A stretch of 64,000 bases of DNA, taken from NCBI RefSeq assembly GCF_016907695.1, contig NZ_JAFBCK010000001.1:248001-312000 (forward strand), given 5' to 3'. This document shows positions 492 to 7,534 of the stretch, piece by piece. How positions within the stretch are numbered: the first letter of the stretch is position 1; every line of letters starts with the position of its first letter. The position numbers and the translations under genes were made by a program. The notes under the pieces were generated by a model. The model was not told where the DNA came from, ran no database searches, and saw only the letters and a program-made list of their open reading frames with translations. The stretch comes from Actinokineospora baliensis (GTDB taxonomy: Bacteria > Actinomycetota > Actinomycetes > Mycobacteriales > Pseudonocardiaceae).

Positions 492-2611
<2,120 letters not shown>

Positions 2612-2612
<1 letters not shown>

Positions 2613-4849
2613 TGCGGTCGACCTACCGCGTTCAGCTGCGGCCGGGTTTCGGGTTCGCCGAGGCCGCCGCGATCGTCGACTACCTGGCCGACCTGGGGGT
2701 GGGGGCGCTCTACACCTCACCGATCCTGACGCCGACACCCGGGTCCACGCACGGGTACGACGTGGTGGACCCGAGCCGGGCCAACCCGGAGCTGGGTGGG
2801 GAGGCCGGGCGCCGGGCGCTGGTGGACCGGTTGCGGGCCGCGGGGTTGGACGTGGTGGTCGACATCGTGCCGAACCACATGTCGGTCGAGGTGCCCTCGG
2901 CCAACGCGTGGTGGTGGGACGTGCTGGCGCACGGCCCCGAATCGCGCTACGCCAGGTACTTCGACATCGAGTCCTTCCCGGTGCTGCTGCCGGTCCTCGG
3001 GTCCGATGAGGACATCGCGAAGGCCACCGTCGATGGGGACGTGCTGCGCTACTACGACCACACGTTCCCCCTCGCCCCGGGAACAGCGGACGCGCCGGAC
3101 GTCCTCGCCAGGCAGCACTACCGGCTGATCGACTGGCGCCGGGCGGGATCGGAACTCAACTACCGCCGGTTCTTCGACGTGACAACACTGGCGGGGGTGC
3201 GGGTCGAAGACGAGGAGGTCTTCGACGCCACCCACGGCGAGGTGCTGCGCTGGGTCAGCGAGGGCGATGTCCAGGGCCTGCGGGTCGACCACCCGGACGG
3301 TCTCGCGGACCCAGGCGGGTACGCGCGGCGGCTGGCTGAGCGGGCGCGGTGCTGGATCGTGGTGGAGAAGATCCTCGAGCCGGGCGAGGAACTGCCCCAG
3401 TCGTGGCCGGTCGCGGGTACCACGGGGTACGACGCCTTGCGCGAGGTGTGCGGGGTGTTCGTCGACCAGGGCGCTGAGGGCGCCTTCACGGGTCTGGCGG
3501 ATTCGCTTGGGGTACCGACGGATTTCGATGCGGTGCGCACCGAGGCCCGACGGTTGATCACGTCCACGTCGCTGGCCGCTGAGGTGCGGCGGATCGCCTC
3601 TCATGTGTCCGATGTGGACGTTGCGGCCGCGCGCGAGGCGGTCGCCGAGGTGATGGTGGCGTTCCCGGTGTACCGGTCGTACCTGCCGGAGGGCGCCGAG
3701 TACCTCGCGGCCGCGATCGGGCGGGTGCGGCGCGAGCGCCCAGACCTCGGCCCGGCCTTGGACGCCATCGACACGCAGATGCGATCGGGCGGCGAACTGG
3801 CGACGCGACTGCAGCAGACCTCGGGCATGGTGGTGGCCAAGGGAACCGAGGACACCACGTTCTACCGCTACACCCGCTTCGCCGCCCTCAACGAAGTCGG
3901 CGGCGACCCGTCCCGCTTCGGGGTCGGCGTCGAGGAGTTCCACGCCGCGCAGGCGCAGCGGGAAGCCACACACCCACTGGCGATGACCGCACTGTCCACA
4001 CACGACACCAAGCGGTCGGAGGACGTGCGAGCACGGCTGGCCGTACTCGCCGAACTACCAGAAGACTTCGCCGACGCGGTCCAGCGGTGGACCGAGCGCC
4101 GCGGACTGCCAGAACCGTGCCTGAACCTGCTGGCCTGGCAGACCCTGCTGGGCGCCTGGCCGATCAACCCCGACCGCCTCTCGGCCTACCTGGACAAGGC
4201 CGCCAAAGAGTCGAAGATCCGAACATCCTGGACCGACCACGACGAGGAGTTCGAGGAGACCGTGCGGGCCTGGCCGCGCGCGGTACTCGGCGACCCGGGC
4301 CTACTGGCCGAGGTCGAGGCGTTCGCCGCCCGAATCGCCCCGCACGGCTGGTCGAACTCCCTCGGGCAGAAGCTGCTGCAACTGGCCGGACCGGGTGTGC
4401 CGGACGTGTACCAGGGCACCGAACTGTGGGACCTGTCCCTCGTGGACCCGGACAACCGCCGCCCGGTGGACTTCGCGGACCGAGCGGAACTGCTGGGAAA
4501 GCTCGCCTCCGGCTGGCCGCCGCCGATCGACGAGACGGGCGCGGTGAAGCTCCACGTGGTGAGAACGGCCTTGCGACTGCGACGGGAGCGACCCTCCCTG
4601 TTCACCGGGTACCAGCCGGTGTACGCGTCGGGGCCTGCGGCTGAGCACGCGGTGGCGTTCGAGAGGACGGGGCTGGTGGCAGTGGCGACCCGCTTGCCGG
4701 TGGGCCTGGATCGCCGCAACGGCTGGGGGGACACGGTATTGCGCCTCCCCGACGGGGAGTGGGTAGACCTGTTGACCGACCGACCAACGGACGGCGGGAT
4801 GGCCGAGATGCTGGCGGACTACCCGGTCGCACTACTGGTGCGTGCGTGA
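2612..4849 (+). CDS. treY: Maltooligosyl trehalose synthase TreY
   Basis: TreY is an intramolecular transglucosidase that turns the reducing-end alpha-1,4 bond of a maltodextrin into alpha-1,1, giving maltooligosyl trehalose. The ATG overlaps the glgX stop; the frame is open further upstream, but the family N-terminus STYRVQLRPGFGF begins at this ATG. Signatures seen: DIVPNHM (about residue 83), GLRVDHPDGL (about 222), VVEKIL (about 250) and STHDTKRSEDVRARL (about 461). Length, 745 residues, is normal. The C-terminus reads MLADYPVALLVRA, and this tail is the sequence copied in the tandem array just downstream. The stop overlaps the next ATG by one base. Confidence 0.95.
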
Positions 4850-5250
4850 TGGCCGAGCCCTTTGGCGTGTGTGCTTTCTCGGTCGCGAGTGCGGCACGAG
4901 ACCGCAGGCACGTGGCGAAGAGGGCGAGCGACGACCACAGGTGGAGCACGGCGTTGCAGCCGACCGACGGCGAGGCGGCCAGCCGACAGCAGCGTAGCCA
5001 CGATACTCGCGGACCGTCCGCCCGCACTATCGGTGCGTGCGTGATGGCCGGTCCCCATGGTGCGTGGCCGCCATCGCGGACCCGGGTGCGGGCGGGGCAC
5101 GAGACGACGCGAGACGACTACAGACGGGGAGCCACTGTGTTGCAGCCGTCCGGCGGAGAGCGGGTCTACAGGGCAAGCAATCAGCCGACGGACGGCGGGA
5201 TGGCCGAGATGCTGGCGGACTACCCGGTCGCCCTGCTGGTGCGTGTGTGA
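4849..5250 (+). CDS. Small chimeric ORF: TreZ-like head, TreY-like tail (array units 1-2)
   Basis: This open frame of 133 codons starts with MAEPFGV, like TreZ, and ends with MLADYPVALLVRV, like the TreY C-terminus. Its ATG overlaps the treY stop and its own stop overlaps the next ATG, both as TGATG, so ribosomes could pass through by termination-reinitiation. The interior is rich in Arg, Ser and Thr, has no known domain and contains the second unit's junction read in frame (ACVMAG). High-GC DNA often stays open by chance, so expression is uncertain. It may be a decayed duplicate kept open because it couples treY to treZ, or a real small protein. Confidence 0.35.
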   Translation: MAEPFGVCAFSVASAARDRRHVAKRASDDHRWSTALQPTDGEAASRQQRSHDTRGPSARTIGACVMAGPHGAWPPSRTRVRAGHETTRDDYRRGATVLQPSGGERVYRASNQPTDGGMAEMLADYPVALLVRV

Positions 5251-5812
5251 TGGCCGAACCGTTCAGCGTGTGGGCGCCTGCGCGGACTCGGGTGCGGCTG
5301 GACGTCGAGCGAGTGTGGCGCGACGGCCACAGATGCGTCACGGCGCTGCAGCCAGCCGACGACGAGATTGCCAACAACCGACAGCGGCGCGGCCACGATG
5401 CCCGCGGGCTGCCCGGGACACTGCGGCTGCTCGCACGGAAGGCGAACCCATGCAGCGTGTGCACATCGTCCCGGGCGAGAAGGGGCACCACCCGGTTGCG
5501 CTGCTGGTGCACACGTGATGGCCGAGACGTCGGCGGCGCGTGGCACGCGACGCCCCCCAGTCGGGACACGGTGTTGCAACCAACCGGCGGCGAGGTGGCC
5601 GACCGAAAGCGGCGCGGCCACGATGCTCGCGGACTACCTGGTCGCGCTGCTGGCGCGCGCGTGATGGCCGTGCCCATCAGCACAGCGTCGCAAGCATCAT
5701 GGACTCGGCTCGGCATCAGGGACGTTCGGTACGAGACGGCCGGCGGCGACCAAGGATGGAGCAGCATGGTGTTGTTCGCGGACTACTGGGTCACCCTGTT
5801 GGTGCGTGTGTG
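4849..5812 (+). repeat. Tandem array of five diverged treY-tail/treZ-head junction units
   Basis: Between treY and treZ the stop/start junction (GTGCGTGYGTGATGGCCG and variants) recurs, with ATGs at 4849, 5044, 5250, 5518 and 5664 and the treZ ATG at 5813. The units are 195, 206, 268, 146 and 149 bp. Each starts like treZ (ATGGCCGAACCGTTCAGCGTG in the third) and ends like the treY 3' end. Positions 4787-4844 and 5188-5245 differ at only two of 58 bases. Most copies share a GTTGCAGCC-type block that treY lacks, so they amplified from each other. This is best explained by repeated duplication of the gene junction followed by decay or reshaping. Confidence 0.85.
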
Positions 5813-5813
5813 A
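5250..5813 (+). CDS. Small chimeric ORF: TreZ-like head, TreY-like tail (array units 3-5)
   Basis: This open frame of 187 codons begins MAEPFSVWAP, identical to the TreZ start over its first 29 bases, and ends FADYWVTLLVRV, like the TreY end. Start and stop overlap the neighbouring frames by one base. Internally a pattern LQPxxxE followed by RRGHDARGLPG occurs twice; it is the treY-tail DNA read in another frame. I see no fold or catalytic motif. It could be a translated small protein, a coupling relay, or a fortuitous open frame in a decaying repeat; the last cannot be excluded. Confidence 0.35.
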   Translation: MAEPFSVWAPARTRVRLDVERVWRDGHRCVTALQPADDEIANNRQRRGHDARGLPGTLRLLARKANPCSVCTSSRARRGTTRLRCWCTRDGRDVGGAWHATPPSRDTVLQPTGGEVADRKRRGHDARGLPGRAAGARVMAVPISTASQASWTRLGIRDVRYETAGGDQGWSSMVLFADYWVTLLVRV

Positions 5814-7534
5814 TGGCCGAACCGTTCAGCGTGTGGGCGCCGTCCCGGTCGCGGGTGCGGGTGGAGACTGGGGGTGCCCGGCACGAGATGGCGCGGGATG
5901 ACCGGGGGTGGTGGCACGCCGAGGTTCCCGGCGCTGGCGCGGGATCCGACTACGCCTTCCTGCTCGATGACGACGCCACCCCGTTGCCGGATCCCAGGTC
6001 GTTGTGGCAGCCGAACGGGGTTCATCGGGCTTCTCGGGTCTACGAGCACCGGGCGTTCGAGTGGACGGACGCCAGGTGGACCGGGCGCCCTCTGGCCGGT
6101 GGAGTCGTCTACGAGCTGCACGTCGGGACGTTCACGAGCGTGGGGACGTTCGATGGGGCGGTTGAGAAGTTGGACCACCTGGTGGACCTGGGTGTCGACT
6201 TCGTGGAAGTGTTGCCGGTCAATGCTTTTGACGGGGTCGCCGGGTGGGGGTATGACGGGGTGCTGTGGGGGGCGGTGCACGAGCCCTACGGCGGGCCGGA
6301 TGGGTTCAAGAGGTTTGTGGACGCCTGTCATGGGCGTGGGATCGCCGTGATCCTCGACGTCGTGTACAACCACCTCGGGCCTTCTGGCGCCTACCTCGAC
6401 CGGTTCGGGCCGTACTTCGCGGGGAAGAACCAGTGGGGTCCGACGCTCAACCTCGACGGGCCGGAGTCCGATGAGGTCCGTCGGTACGTCATCGACAACG
6501 CCCTCGGGTGGCTGCGCGACTTCCACGTCGACGGGCTCCGGTTGGACGCCGTGCACGCGCTGGTGGACACCCGCGCGACGCACCTGTTGGAGGAGTTGGC
6601 GGTCGAGGTCGAGACCCTGTCCACCGGGCTGGGTCGGCCGTTGTCGCTGATCGCCGAGTCGGACCTGAACGATCCCCGGCACGTGACCCCCCGGGCAGCG
6701 GGCGGCTACGGCCTCGACGCCCAGTGGTGCGACGACCTGCACCACGCGTTGCACGTGACGTTGACCGGCGAGACTTCGGGCTACTACAAGGACTTCGAGC
6801 GCGCCCTGCCGGAGACGCTGCGGTCGGCGTTCTTCCACGCGGGTACGTGGTCGTCCTTCCGCAAGCGGACCCACGGCAGGCCGGTCAACACGCTGACCAC
6901 ACCCGGGCACCGATTCCTGGCCTACCTGCAGAACCACGACCAGATCGGCAACCGCGCCACCGGCGACCGCCTGACCGCGACGGTGTCCAACGACCGGCTG
7001 CTCTGCGGCGCCGCCCTGGTGCTGTGTTCCCCTTACACCCCAATGCTTTTCATGGGCGAGGAGTGGGGCGCGACGACCCCGTGGCAGTTCTTCGCGTCGT
7101 TCCCCGACCCGGAGTTGGCCGAGGCGGTGCGCACGGGCCGTCGGCGGGAGTTCGCCGAGCACGGCTGGGGCGAGACAGAAGTCCCGGACCCGATTTCGCC
7201 AGACACCGTCAAGAACTCCACTGTGGACTGGAACGAACTCGACGACCCCGAGCACCAGCGTGTGCTGCGGATCTACCGGGCGCTCATCGCGTTGCGCCGC
7301 AAGCACCCCGAGCTCACCGACCCGCGCCTCGACCGGTTCAAGGTCGAGCACGGCGGGGGCTGGCTGGTACTGCACCGCGCGTCCTTGCGCGTCGCCGTCA
7401 ACTTCGGGCCCGACCACGTGAACCTGCCCCTGCGGGCCACCTCGGTGCTGCTCGCCGCGGACCGGGTCGAAGCCAGGGGCGACGTCGCGCTACCGCCGGA
7501 GACCTTCGCGGTGGTCAGCACGGTCCGGACATAG
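5813..7534 (+). CDS. treZ: Maltooligosyl trehalose trehalohydrolase TreZ
   Basis: TreZ is a GH13 enzyme that hydrolyses the bond next to the trehalosyl end of maltooligosyl trehalose, releasing free trehalose. The start is the ATG in the last TGATG junction, giving 573 residues and the expected N-terminal sandwich domain (EPFSVWAPSRSRVRV). Signatures: DVVYNHLGP (about residue 183), GLRLDAVHAL with the nucleophile Asp (about 240), IAESDLND with the acid Glu (about 280) and LQNHDQIGNRATGDR (about 371). It closes the operon and is followed at once by a strong hairpin terminator. Its 5' end is the apparent source of the heads of the upstream array units. Confidence 0.95.
   Translation: MAEPFSVWAPSRSRVRVETGGARHEMARDDRGWWHAEVPGAGAGSDYAFLLDDDATPLPDPRSLWQPNGVHRASRVYEHRAFEWTDARWTGRPLAGGVVYELHVGTFTSVGTFDGAVEKLDHLVDLGVDFVEVLPVNAFDGVAGWGYDGVLWGAVHEPYGGPDGFKRFVDACHGRGIAVILDVVYNHLGPSGAYLDRFGPYFAGKNQWGPTLNLDGPESDEVRRYVIDNALGWLRDFHVDGLRLDAVHALVDTRATHLLEELAVEVETLSTGLGRPLSLIAESDLNDPRHVTPRAAGGYGLDAQWCDDLHHALHVTLTGETSGYYKDFERALPETLRSAFFHAGTWSSFRKRTHGRPVNTLTTPGHRFLAYLQNHDQIGNRATGDRLTATVSNDRLLCGAALVLCSPYTPMLFMGEEWGATTPWQFFASFPDPELAEAVRTGRRREFAEHGWGETEVPDPISPDTVKNSTVDWNELDDPEHQRVLRIYRALIALRRKHPELTDPRLDRFKVEHGGGWLVLHRASLRVAVNFGPDHVNLPLRATSVLLAADRVEARGDVALPPETFAVVSTVRT

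What the first reader, a model, noticed from the sequence alone, without database searches (positions are those of the whole stretch)
4787..5830. Tandem array built from the treY-treZ gene junction
Seen: between treY and treZ, normally adjacent, lie 963 bp made of five units whose borders all read TGATGGCC after a GTGCGTG-type sequence (ATGs at 4849, 5044, 5250, 5518, 5664; treZ at 5813). Unit heads resemble the treZ 5' end and unit tails the treY 3' end; 58-base segments at 4787 and 5188 differ at two positions. Most copies share a GTTGCAGCC-type block absent from treY, so they amplified among themselves. Inference: repeated slippage or recombination at a stop/start overlap has produced a gene-junction satellite. 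I know of no described array of this kind.
Basis: partly seen in the sequence, partly recalled or inferred. Interest (0 to 1): 0.78.

Follow-up and report, generated by a model that had tools for sequence, protein, structure and literature searches.

The report
Echo repeats at coupled gene junctions
Between two trehalose genes of an Actinokineospora bacterium sits a stack of decayed copies of the gene-to-gene boundary itself, each joining the start of the second gene to the end of the first, and similar 'echo' units turn up at a few other tightly coupled gene pairs in this genus.

Summary
The array is real. Between treY (stop 4847-4849) and treZ (ATG 5813) lie 963 bp made of six units, not five. 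Each is a piece of the treZ start joined to a piece of the treY end. The 'GTTGCAGCC block' is treY-derived, not foreign. Fourteen congeners with treYZ lack the insert. Likeliest origin: tandem duplication across the TGATG stop/start overlap, then amplification and decay.

Two further results. First, ribosomes could still be handed from treY to treZ: ATG4849 to TGA5250, ATG5250 to TGA5813, each through TGATG. The sense strand has one non-junction stop; simulated decay gives 11-17. Second, it is not alone. A 1.2-Mb sample (16%) of the same genome holds three more such loci (Baseplate_J|Tail_P2_I, FAD hydroxylase|luciferase-like, Inositol_P|SDR); 0.4 Mb of the nearest relative holds one, and a third congener one. 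All six keep an unbroken stop/start relay (null 22-32% each); two of the six have only a short or weak match on one side. Relatives mostly have the two genes directly adjoining.

Best reading: short tandem duplications are tolerated at gene junctions and kept when they preserve translational coupling. Nine full-text searches found no description.

The parts
492..2612 (+). glgX-like glycogen debranching gene, open frame
   Evidence: TIGR02100, 1027.5 bits
2612..4849 (+). treY, maltooligosyltrehalose synthase, 745 aa; its stop TGA 4847-4849 overlaps ATG 4849
   Evidence: TIGR02401, 849.1 bits; start taken at MRSTYRVQL
4736..4848 (+). treY 3' end that supplied the unit tails
4849..5043 (+). unit U1, 195 nt: decayed treZ head + treY tail, frameshifted inside
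   Evidence: tail z 9.6, head z 8.1; alignment
5044..5249 (+). unit U2, 206 nt: most complete unit, tail nearly identical to treY
   Evidence: tail z 40.9, head z 5.3; 58/61 identities
5250..5438 (+). unit U3a, 189 nt: head nearly treZ, tail decayed
   Evidence: head z 22.6, tail z 4.5; 46/52 identities
5439..5517 (+). unit U3b, 79 nt: deleted unit; its 5' border has lost stop and ATG
   Evidence: tail z 6.4, head z 4.4; family D6
5518..5663 (+). unit U4, 146 nt
   Evidence: tail z 16.3, head z 0.0
5664..5812 (+). unit U5, 149 nt
   Evidence: tail z 8.9, head z 0.4
4849..5250 (+). relay frame 1: ATG 4849 to TGA 5248-5250, 133 codons, crosses U1 and U2
5250..5813 (+). relay frame 2: ATG 5250 to TGA 5811-5813, 187 codons, crosses U3a to U5 and ends on the treZ start
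4995..4997 (+). TAG, the only sense-strand stop codon in the insert, in any frame, apart from the junction TGAs; not in the relay frame
5813..7534 (+). treZ, maltooligosyltrehalose trehalohydrolase, 573 aa
   Evidence: TIGR02402, 737 bits

Best explanation
The insert is a decayed array of junction-spanning tandem duplications ('echoes'). A stretch reaching from inside the treY end across the TGATG overlap into the treZ start was duplicated in tandem. Such a duplication leaves both genes whole and puts between them a mini-ORF with the start of the second gene and the end of the first, with a stop/start overlap at each end. It is therefore one of the few kinds of short tandem duplication that an operon can carry without breaking a gene. 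If the unit length suits the frame, a ribosome finishing treY restarts on the echo, finishes it and restarts on treZ, so coupling survives. Further unequal exchange and decay made six unlike units. The same event happened independently at other overlapped junctions in this genome and in congeners. Shown: units, sources, absence in relatives, intact relay, recurrence. Inferred: duplication as the event, selection for an open relay, use of the relay by ribosomes.
For: Both sources identified and colinear. No insert in 14 of 14 congeners with treYZ, spacing -1 to 41 nt. Relay intact; it survives in 31 of 5000 Markov simulations and in 0.75-2.45% of 2000 decay simulations for each of four founder sequences, which expect 11.1-17.2 non-junction sense stops against 1 seen (at or below 1 in at most 0.05%), while antisense stops fit (13 seen, 13.1-14.8 expected). 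Recurrence: a detector blind to frame found 4 loci in 1.2 Mb of this genome (one is the given array) and 1 in 0.4 Mb of G015; one more in G008. Relatives of each locus mostly have the two genes adjoining. 6 of 6 loci have intact relays against 460 of 1435 detected simulated duplications (32%), or 22.5-27.2% with decay.
Against: GC-rich DNA has few stops: 6.8% of 11,520 windows of 964 nt from this genome hold as few stops as the whole insert (5, junction TGAs counted); 0.19% hold at most 1. The decay simulation treats units as independent, though they share history, and the deficit of stops is not confined to the relay frame, which coupling alone does not predict. One of the inner borders (5439) has decayed. 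The third-position excess of differences (126 of 304 against 82 of 310 and 80 of 309, summed) is confounded by silent change in treY and treZ. Four of six loci are one-sided or weak by plain local score: L188 tail z -0.1, L272 head z 0.8, L227 tail z 2.9, and in treYZ two unit heads. The relay null was built for single units. No expression data.
Confidence: 0.7

Rival explanations
1. Pure relic: the junction was tandemly duplicated and has decayed with no selection; frames look open because the DNA is 70% GC and came from coding DNA.
For: U1 and U3 carry frameshifts and one border is lost; units differ from the treYZ references by about 20-43% in head and tail, similar to four-fold sites between G000 and G015 (109/291 and 85/252); the stop deficit also covers frames the relay does not use; no hit for either ORF in the protein collection, Pfam or NCBIfam.
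Against: Sense-strand stop deficit against simulated decay while the antisense strand fits; 6 of 6 loci in frame against 22-32%.
Confidence: 0.2
2. The 133- and 187-codon frames are new chimeric genes whose peptides have a function.
For: Frames open, third-position GC 0.79-0.81 against 0.89-0.90 in treY and treZ.
Against: No homologue at E 0.01, no family; absent from congeners; second-position GC 0.62 against 0.48-0.49 in the genes, so composition is not that of normal genes here; internal frameshifts mix treZ and treY frames.
Confidence: 0.06
3. A targeted process (a mobile element or a mechanism acting on stop/start overlaps) makes the echoes.
For: Recurrence, twice at the same Baseplate_J|Tail_P2_I junction in G000 and G008.
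Against: No shared element between loci: each echo derives from its own two genes; end points vary; the same genome also carries gene-internal and intergenic tandem repeats, as an untargeted rate would give.
Confidence: 0.05
4. Assembly artefact.
For: Repeats are prone to misassembly; reads were not available.
Against: Units differ by 25-49% from each other, so no assembler would have made them by duplication; the genome is one contig.
Confidence: 0.01

Closest known systems
Translationally coupled gene pairs with stop/start overlap (TGATG or ATGA; termination-reinitiation; PMC6728339, abstract and section list seen; PMC12548453, passages seen)
   Same: treY|treZ in four close congeners (G015, G011, G005, G008) and every live border of the array use the -1 TGATG overlap; other echo loci use the -4 form GTGA or ATGA.
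   Different: Here the overlap itself is repeated, with chimeric mini-ORFs between the two genes.
Tandem duplications that make chimeric genes (described for Drosophila and Oryza: listings of PMC4503668 and PMC9199173 seen only)
   Same: A tandem duplication with ends inside two neighbouring genes makes a chimeric ORF at the new joint.
   Different: Here about 100-400 bp, inside bacterial operons, the chimera being start of the second gene plus end of the first, with both parents intact.
Bacterial tandem repeats (VNTR, intergenic satellites)
   Same: Head-to-tail units differing in number between species.
   Different: Unit is a coding gene junction, and units are strongly diverged; Tandem Repeats Finder misses the array.
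Origin of unidirectional overlapping genes by start or stop codon change (PMC3887535, passages for three terms seen)
   Same: Concerns how coupled junctions arise.
   Different: That paper models point mutations; 'duplication' and 'repeat' do not occur in its main text.

Membership tests
Junction-spanning tandem duplication ('echo') | unit head derives from the start of the downstream gene | tested here: met
   46/52 to treZ, z 18.6-19.1; U4 and U5 heads not significant singly
Junction-spanning tandem duplication ('echo') | unit tail derives from the end of the upstream gene | tested here: met
   58/61 to treY, z 34.7-36.8; six of six unit tails z 4.5-40.9
Junction-spanning tandem duplication ('echo') | both parent genes stay whole | tested here: met
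   TIGR02401 residues 2-744 of 745, TIGR02402 residues 5-538 of 573
Junction-spanning tandem duplication ('echo') | relatives have the junction without the insert | tested here: met
   14 of 14 congeners with treYZ; G006 had only distant paralogue matches
Translationally coupled gene pair | stop/start overlap | tested here: met
   TGATG at 4847, 5042, 5248, 5516, 5662, 5811
Translationally coupled gene pair | translation of the second gene depends on the first | not testable with these tools
   needs a reporter or profiling
Dispersed intergenic repeat or mobile element | copies elsewhere in the genome | tested here: not met
   only one other match in the genome, 58 bases at 78%, E 6.5e-4
VNTR / satellite | copy number varies between strains | not testable with these tools
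   one genome per species held
New functional gene | conserved or recognisable protein | tested here: not met
Structured RNA of a known family | Rfam match at gathering score | tested here: not met
   0 matches in 4600-6000

The most novel reading that the evidence does not exclude
In Actinokineospora short tandem duplications land repeatedly on overlapped gene junctions, and translational coupling acts as the sieve: only in-frame echoes persist, so operons gain chains of coupled chimeric mini-ORFs. That would be a continuing route by which bacteria grow new translated ORFs inside operons, with overlapped junctions as its nursery.
Probability: 0.3. Interest if true: 0.8.

Novelty: new variant of a known kind. 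Interest (0 to 1): 0.6.

Why it matters
Short tandem duplications inside operons are normally thought of as gene-breaking. Here a class survives because it spans the boundary between two coupled genes: both genes remain whole and a translated chimeric ORF appears between them. If the in-frame excess holds in a full survey, it measures from sequence alone how strongly natural selection depends on translational coupling, junction by junction, and it names a simple source of small lineage-specific ORFs in operons. Annotation pipelines would tend to call such echoes spacers, small hypothetical proteins or wrong gene starts.

Tried and rejected
Mobile or dispersed repeat: rejected, single locus in the genome. 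Foreign block: rejected, treY-derived. Known protein or RNA: none; promoter or terminator pattern: none. Same array in other genera: of 80 named treZ loci, 60 had treY upstream on the same strand; of the 11 with a gap over 46 nt I tested eight, plus one with 44 nt, and left three (L080, L093, L075) untested; best z 3.8, 3.4 and 3.4 (L058, L085, L068) against 36.8 and 18.6 here, two of those just above the top of 100 shuffles. In 150 family genomes 83 matched; the row list was cut short and I picked wide gaps by eye; of 11 gaps tested none was array-like (best z 3.8, L197). Codon-position test for coding constraint: confounded. Wider dating: units are about as diverged as four-fold sites between G000 and G015, so the array is either about as old as that split or evolves fast; not resolved.

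Detector limits: the first version printed 52 passing pairs in 1.2 Mb, mostly repeats inside genes or in spacers, against 0.5 expected from random pairs; on the 80 named loci its random-pair control was inflated because those loci are homologous, and the script then stopped with an error on a single-locus set. The later version asks for coding-like flanks: 4 of 22 clusters in this genome, 1 of 3 in G015, 0 of 10 in G014, 0 of 7 in G031, 0 of 2 in the 80 loci, none in 50 kb of E. coli. Five loci in 1.6 Mb against none in 1.31 Mb (G014, G031, the 80 loci) is not a significant difference, all the less as one of the five was the given finding and its stretch was put in on purpose. L138 was left out of the six because its unit heads do not match its downstream gene. 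The G008 locus was a by-product with a looser flank limit (60 codons), not part of a planned scan.
Full report
WHAT IS THERE. The window lies in a one-contig 7.68-Mb genome. The close named relatives of its TreZ are Actinokineospora (A. terrae 84%, A. pegani 75%, A. auranticolor 73%), so I treat it as a member of that genus. The genes are glgX, treY and treZ. Aligned to the treZ start and the treY end of this genome and of four congeners, the insert resolves into six units of 195, 206, 189, 79, 146 and 149 nt. Each unit is treZ start then treY end. U2 is the most complete; its tail is 58/61 identical to treY, and the next unit's head is 46/52 identical to treZ, so the U2|U3a border is the freshest copy of the true junction. 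Other units differ from the references by about 20-43% in head and tail.

ONLY HERE. In 14 of 14 congeners with both genes the estimated spacing from treY stop to treZ start is -1 to 41 nt; the fifteenth, G006, gave only distant paralogue matches. In the closest four, the junction is the same TGATG overlap. Wider sets of treYZ spacers gave no comparable array, within the limits given under Tried and rejected; some hold unrelated open frames. Four-fold sites differ by 109/291 and 85/252 between G000 and G015.

THE RELAY. From ATG 4849 the frame is open to the TGA at 5248-5250, which overlaps ATG 5250; from there it is open to the TGA at 5811-5813, which overlaps the treZ ATG. U4 and U5 are also small closed frames of their own (48 and 49 codons). 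The sense strand has one stop codon beyond the junction TGAs, at 4995 and outside the relay frame; the antisense strand has 13. Simulated neutral decay from four founder reconstructions expects 11.1-17.2 such sense stops and 13.1-14.8 antisense stops, and keeps the relay in 0.75-2.45% of runs. Cautions: shared history of the units is ignored, the deficit is not limited to the frame in use, and counting junction stops the insert is not extreme for this genome (6.8% of 11,520 windows; 0.19% have at most one). No protein, family, RNA, promoter or terminator match was found.

IT RECURS. In 60 stretches of 20 kb (1.2 Mb, 16% of the genome, the array's own stretch included on purpose) a detector that looks for stop/start overlaps duplicated in register between two coding frames, without asking for frame, returned four loci: treYZ and three more, read and named by Pfam. 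L177 (Baseplate_J | Tail_P2_I): 63-codon echo, tail 104/135, head 37/42. L178 (FAD_binding_3 with Rng_hyd_C | Bac_luciferase): 66-codon echo, tail 60/73, head 28/34. L188 (Inositol_P | short-chain dehydrogenase): three echoes of 62, 72 and 89 codons, best head 93/96, tail only a short stretch at the junction. In 0.4 Mb of G015 one locus, L227 (histidine-kinase-like ATPase | unnamed): 70 codons, head 52/72, tail weak. In G008 the L177 junction has an echo array of its own, L272: tail 144/149, head 15/16 anchored at the start, relay of 134 codons.

EMPTY SITES, measured among fetched loci where both gene ends were found. L177: 13 of 14 congeners have a spacing of -4 to 44 nt; the fourteenth is G008. 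L178: six of six congeners (nine loci), -4 to 14. L188: two of two, -1 and 2. L227: this genome -1, three others -19 to 11, and G005 has a 625-nt spacer without a detected echo. So the gains are lineage-specific, and at one junction they happened twice, since G015, G005 and G011 have the empty form.

FRAME TEST. Simulated tandem duplications over real overlapped junctions of this genome (136 in 1.2 Mb) are detected in 1435 of 1500 cases and keep the relay in 460 (32%); with 10-30% decay, 22.5-27.2% of the detected keep it. Observed: 6 of 6, or 5 of 5 without the by-product G008 locus. At 0.32 each that is about 0.001 and 0.003. The sample is small, and the null is for single units.

READING. 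A tandem duplication that spans a gene boundary is the kind an operon can survive: both genes stay whole. If its length suits the frame, translation passes through. I take the array as an old, repeatedly amplified case of this. Duplication and recurrence are well supported; selection for the relay is likely; use of the relay by ribosomes is inference. That stop/start overlaps couple translation is established: 13 of 14 tested pairs were strictly coupled (abstract of PMC6728339), coupling is most efficient at spacings of -4 to +3 nt, and untranslated RNA invites Rho (passages of PMC12548453).

NOVELTY. Nine full-text searches of the held library gave no listing that describes such echoes; I opened three papers, in part. 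The library lacks most subscription journals. I file this as a new variant of tandem duplication; whether the genus is special is open.

Noticed in passing
L138 18318-18759 (G000:C1:678318-678759): Three 146-bp units, 99% alike, each a 49-codon ATGA-coupled frame, between EccE and the next gene; 14 of 14 nt at the border match the EccE end but the unit heads do not match the downstream gene. In 15 congeners the spacing is -1 to 76 nt.
   Followed up: partly
L157 10311-11578, L181 7476-8566, L185 6867-7621: Tandem repeats, apparently in spacers of this genome; frames in L157 and L181 share 'DLFCVG' and 'ARWGGPVLCGGAAPVA', so a dispersed repeat may be involved.
   Followed up: no
L335 (G005), between its homologues of the L227 gene pair: A 625-nt spacer at a junction that is tight in the four other relatives measured; no echo detected.
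   Followed up: partly
L116 (Micromonospora sp. PLK6-60) 5096-6248: Tandem array with spacings that are multiples of 144 nt, downstream of treZ; flanks did not pass as coding.
   Followed up: no
L083, L109, L068 treY-treZ spacers: Unrelated open frames sit between treY and treZ in other actinomycetes (by look and recall: a LysM-bearing secreted protein, a PPK2-like kinase on the opposite strand, a methyltransferase), so this junction takes inserts of several kinds.
   Followed up: partly
window 4849-5812: The units have diverged about as much as four-fold sites between this species and its nearest relative, though that relative lacks the array: old array lost there, or fast change.
   Followed up: partly
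window 5540-7534: The treZ frame is open upstream through U4 and U5 to a GTG at 5540 (664 codons), so a gene caller may place the treZ start too early.
   Followed up: no
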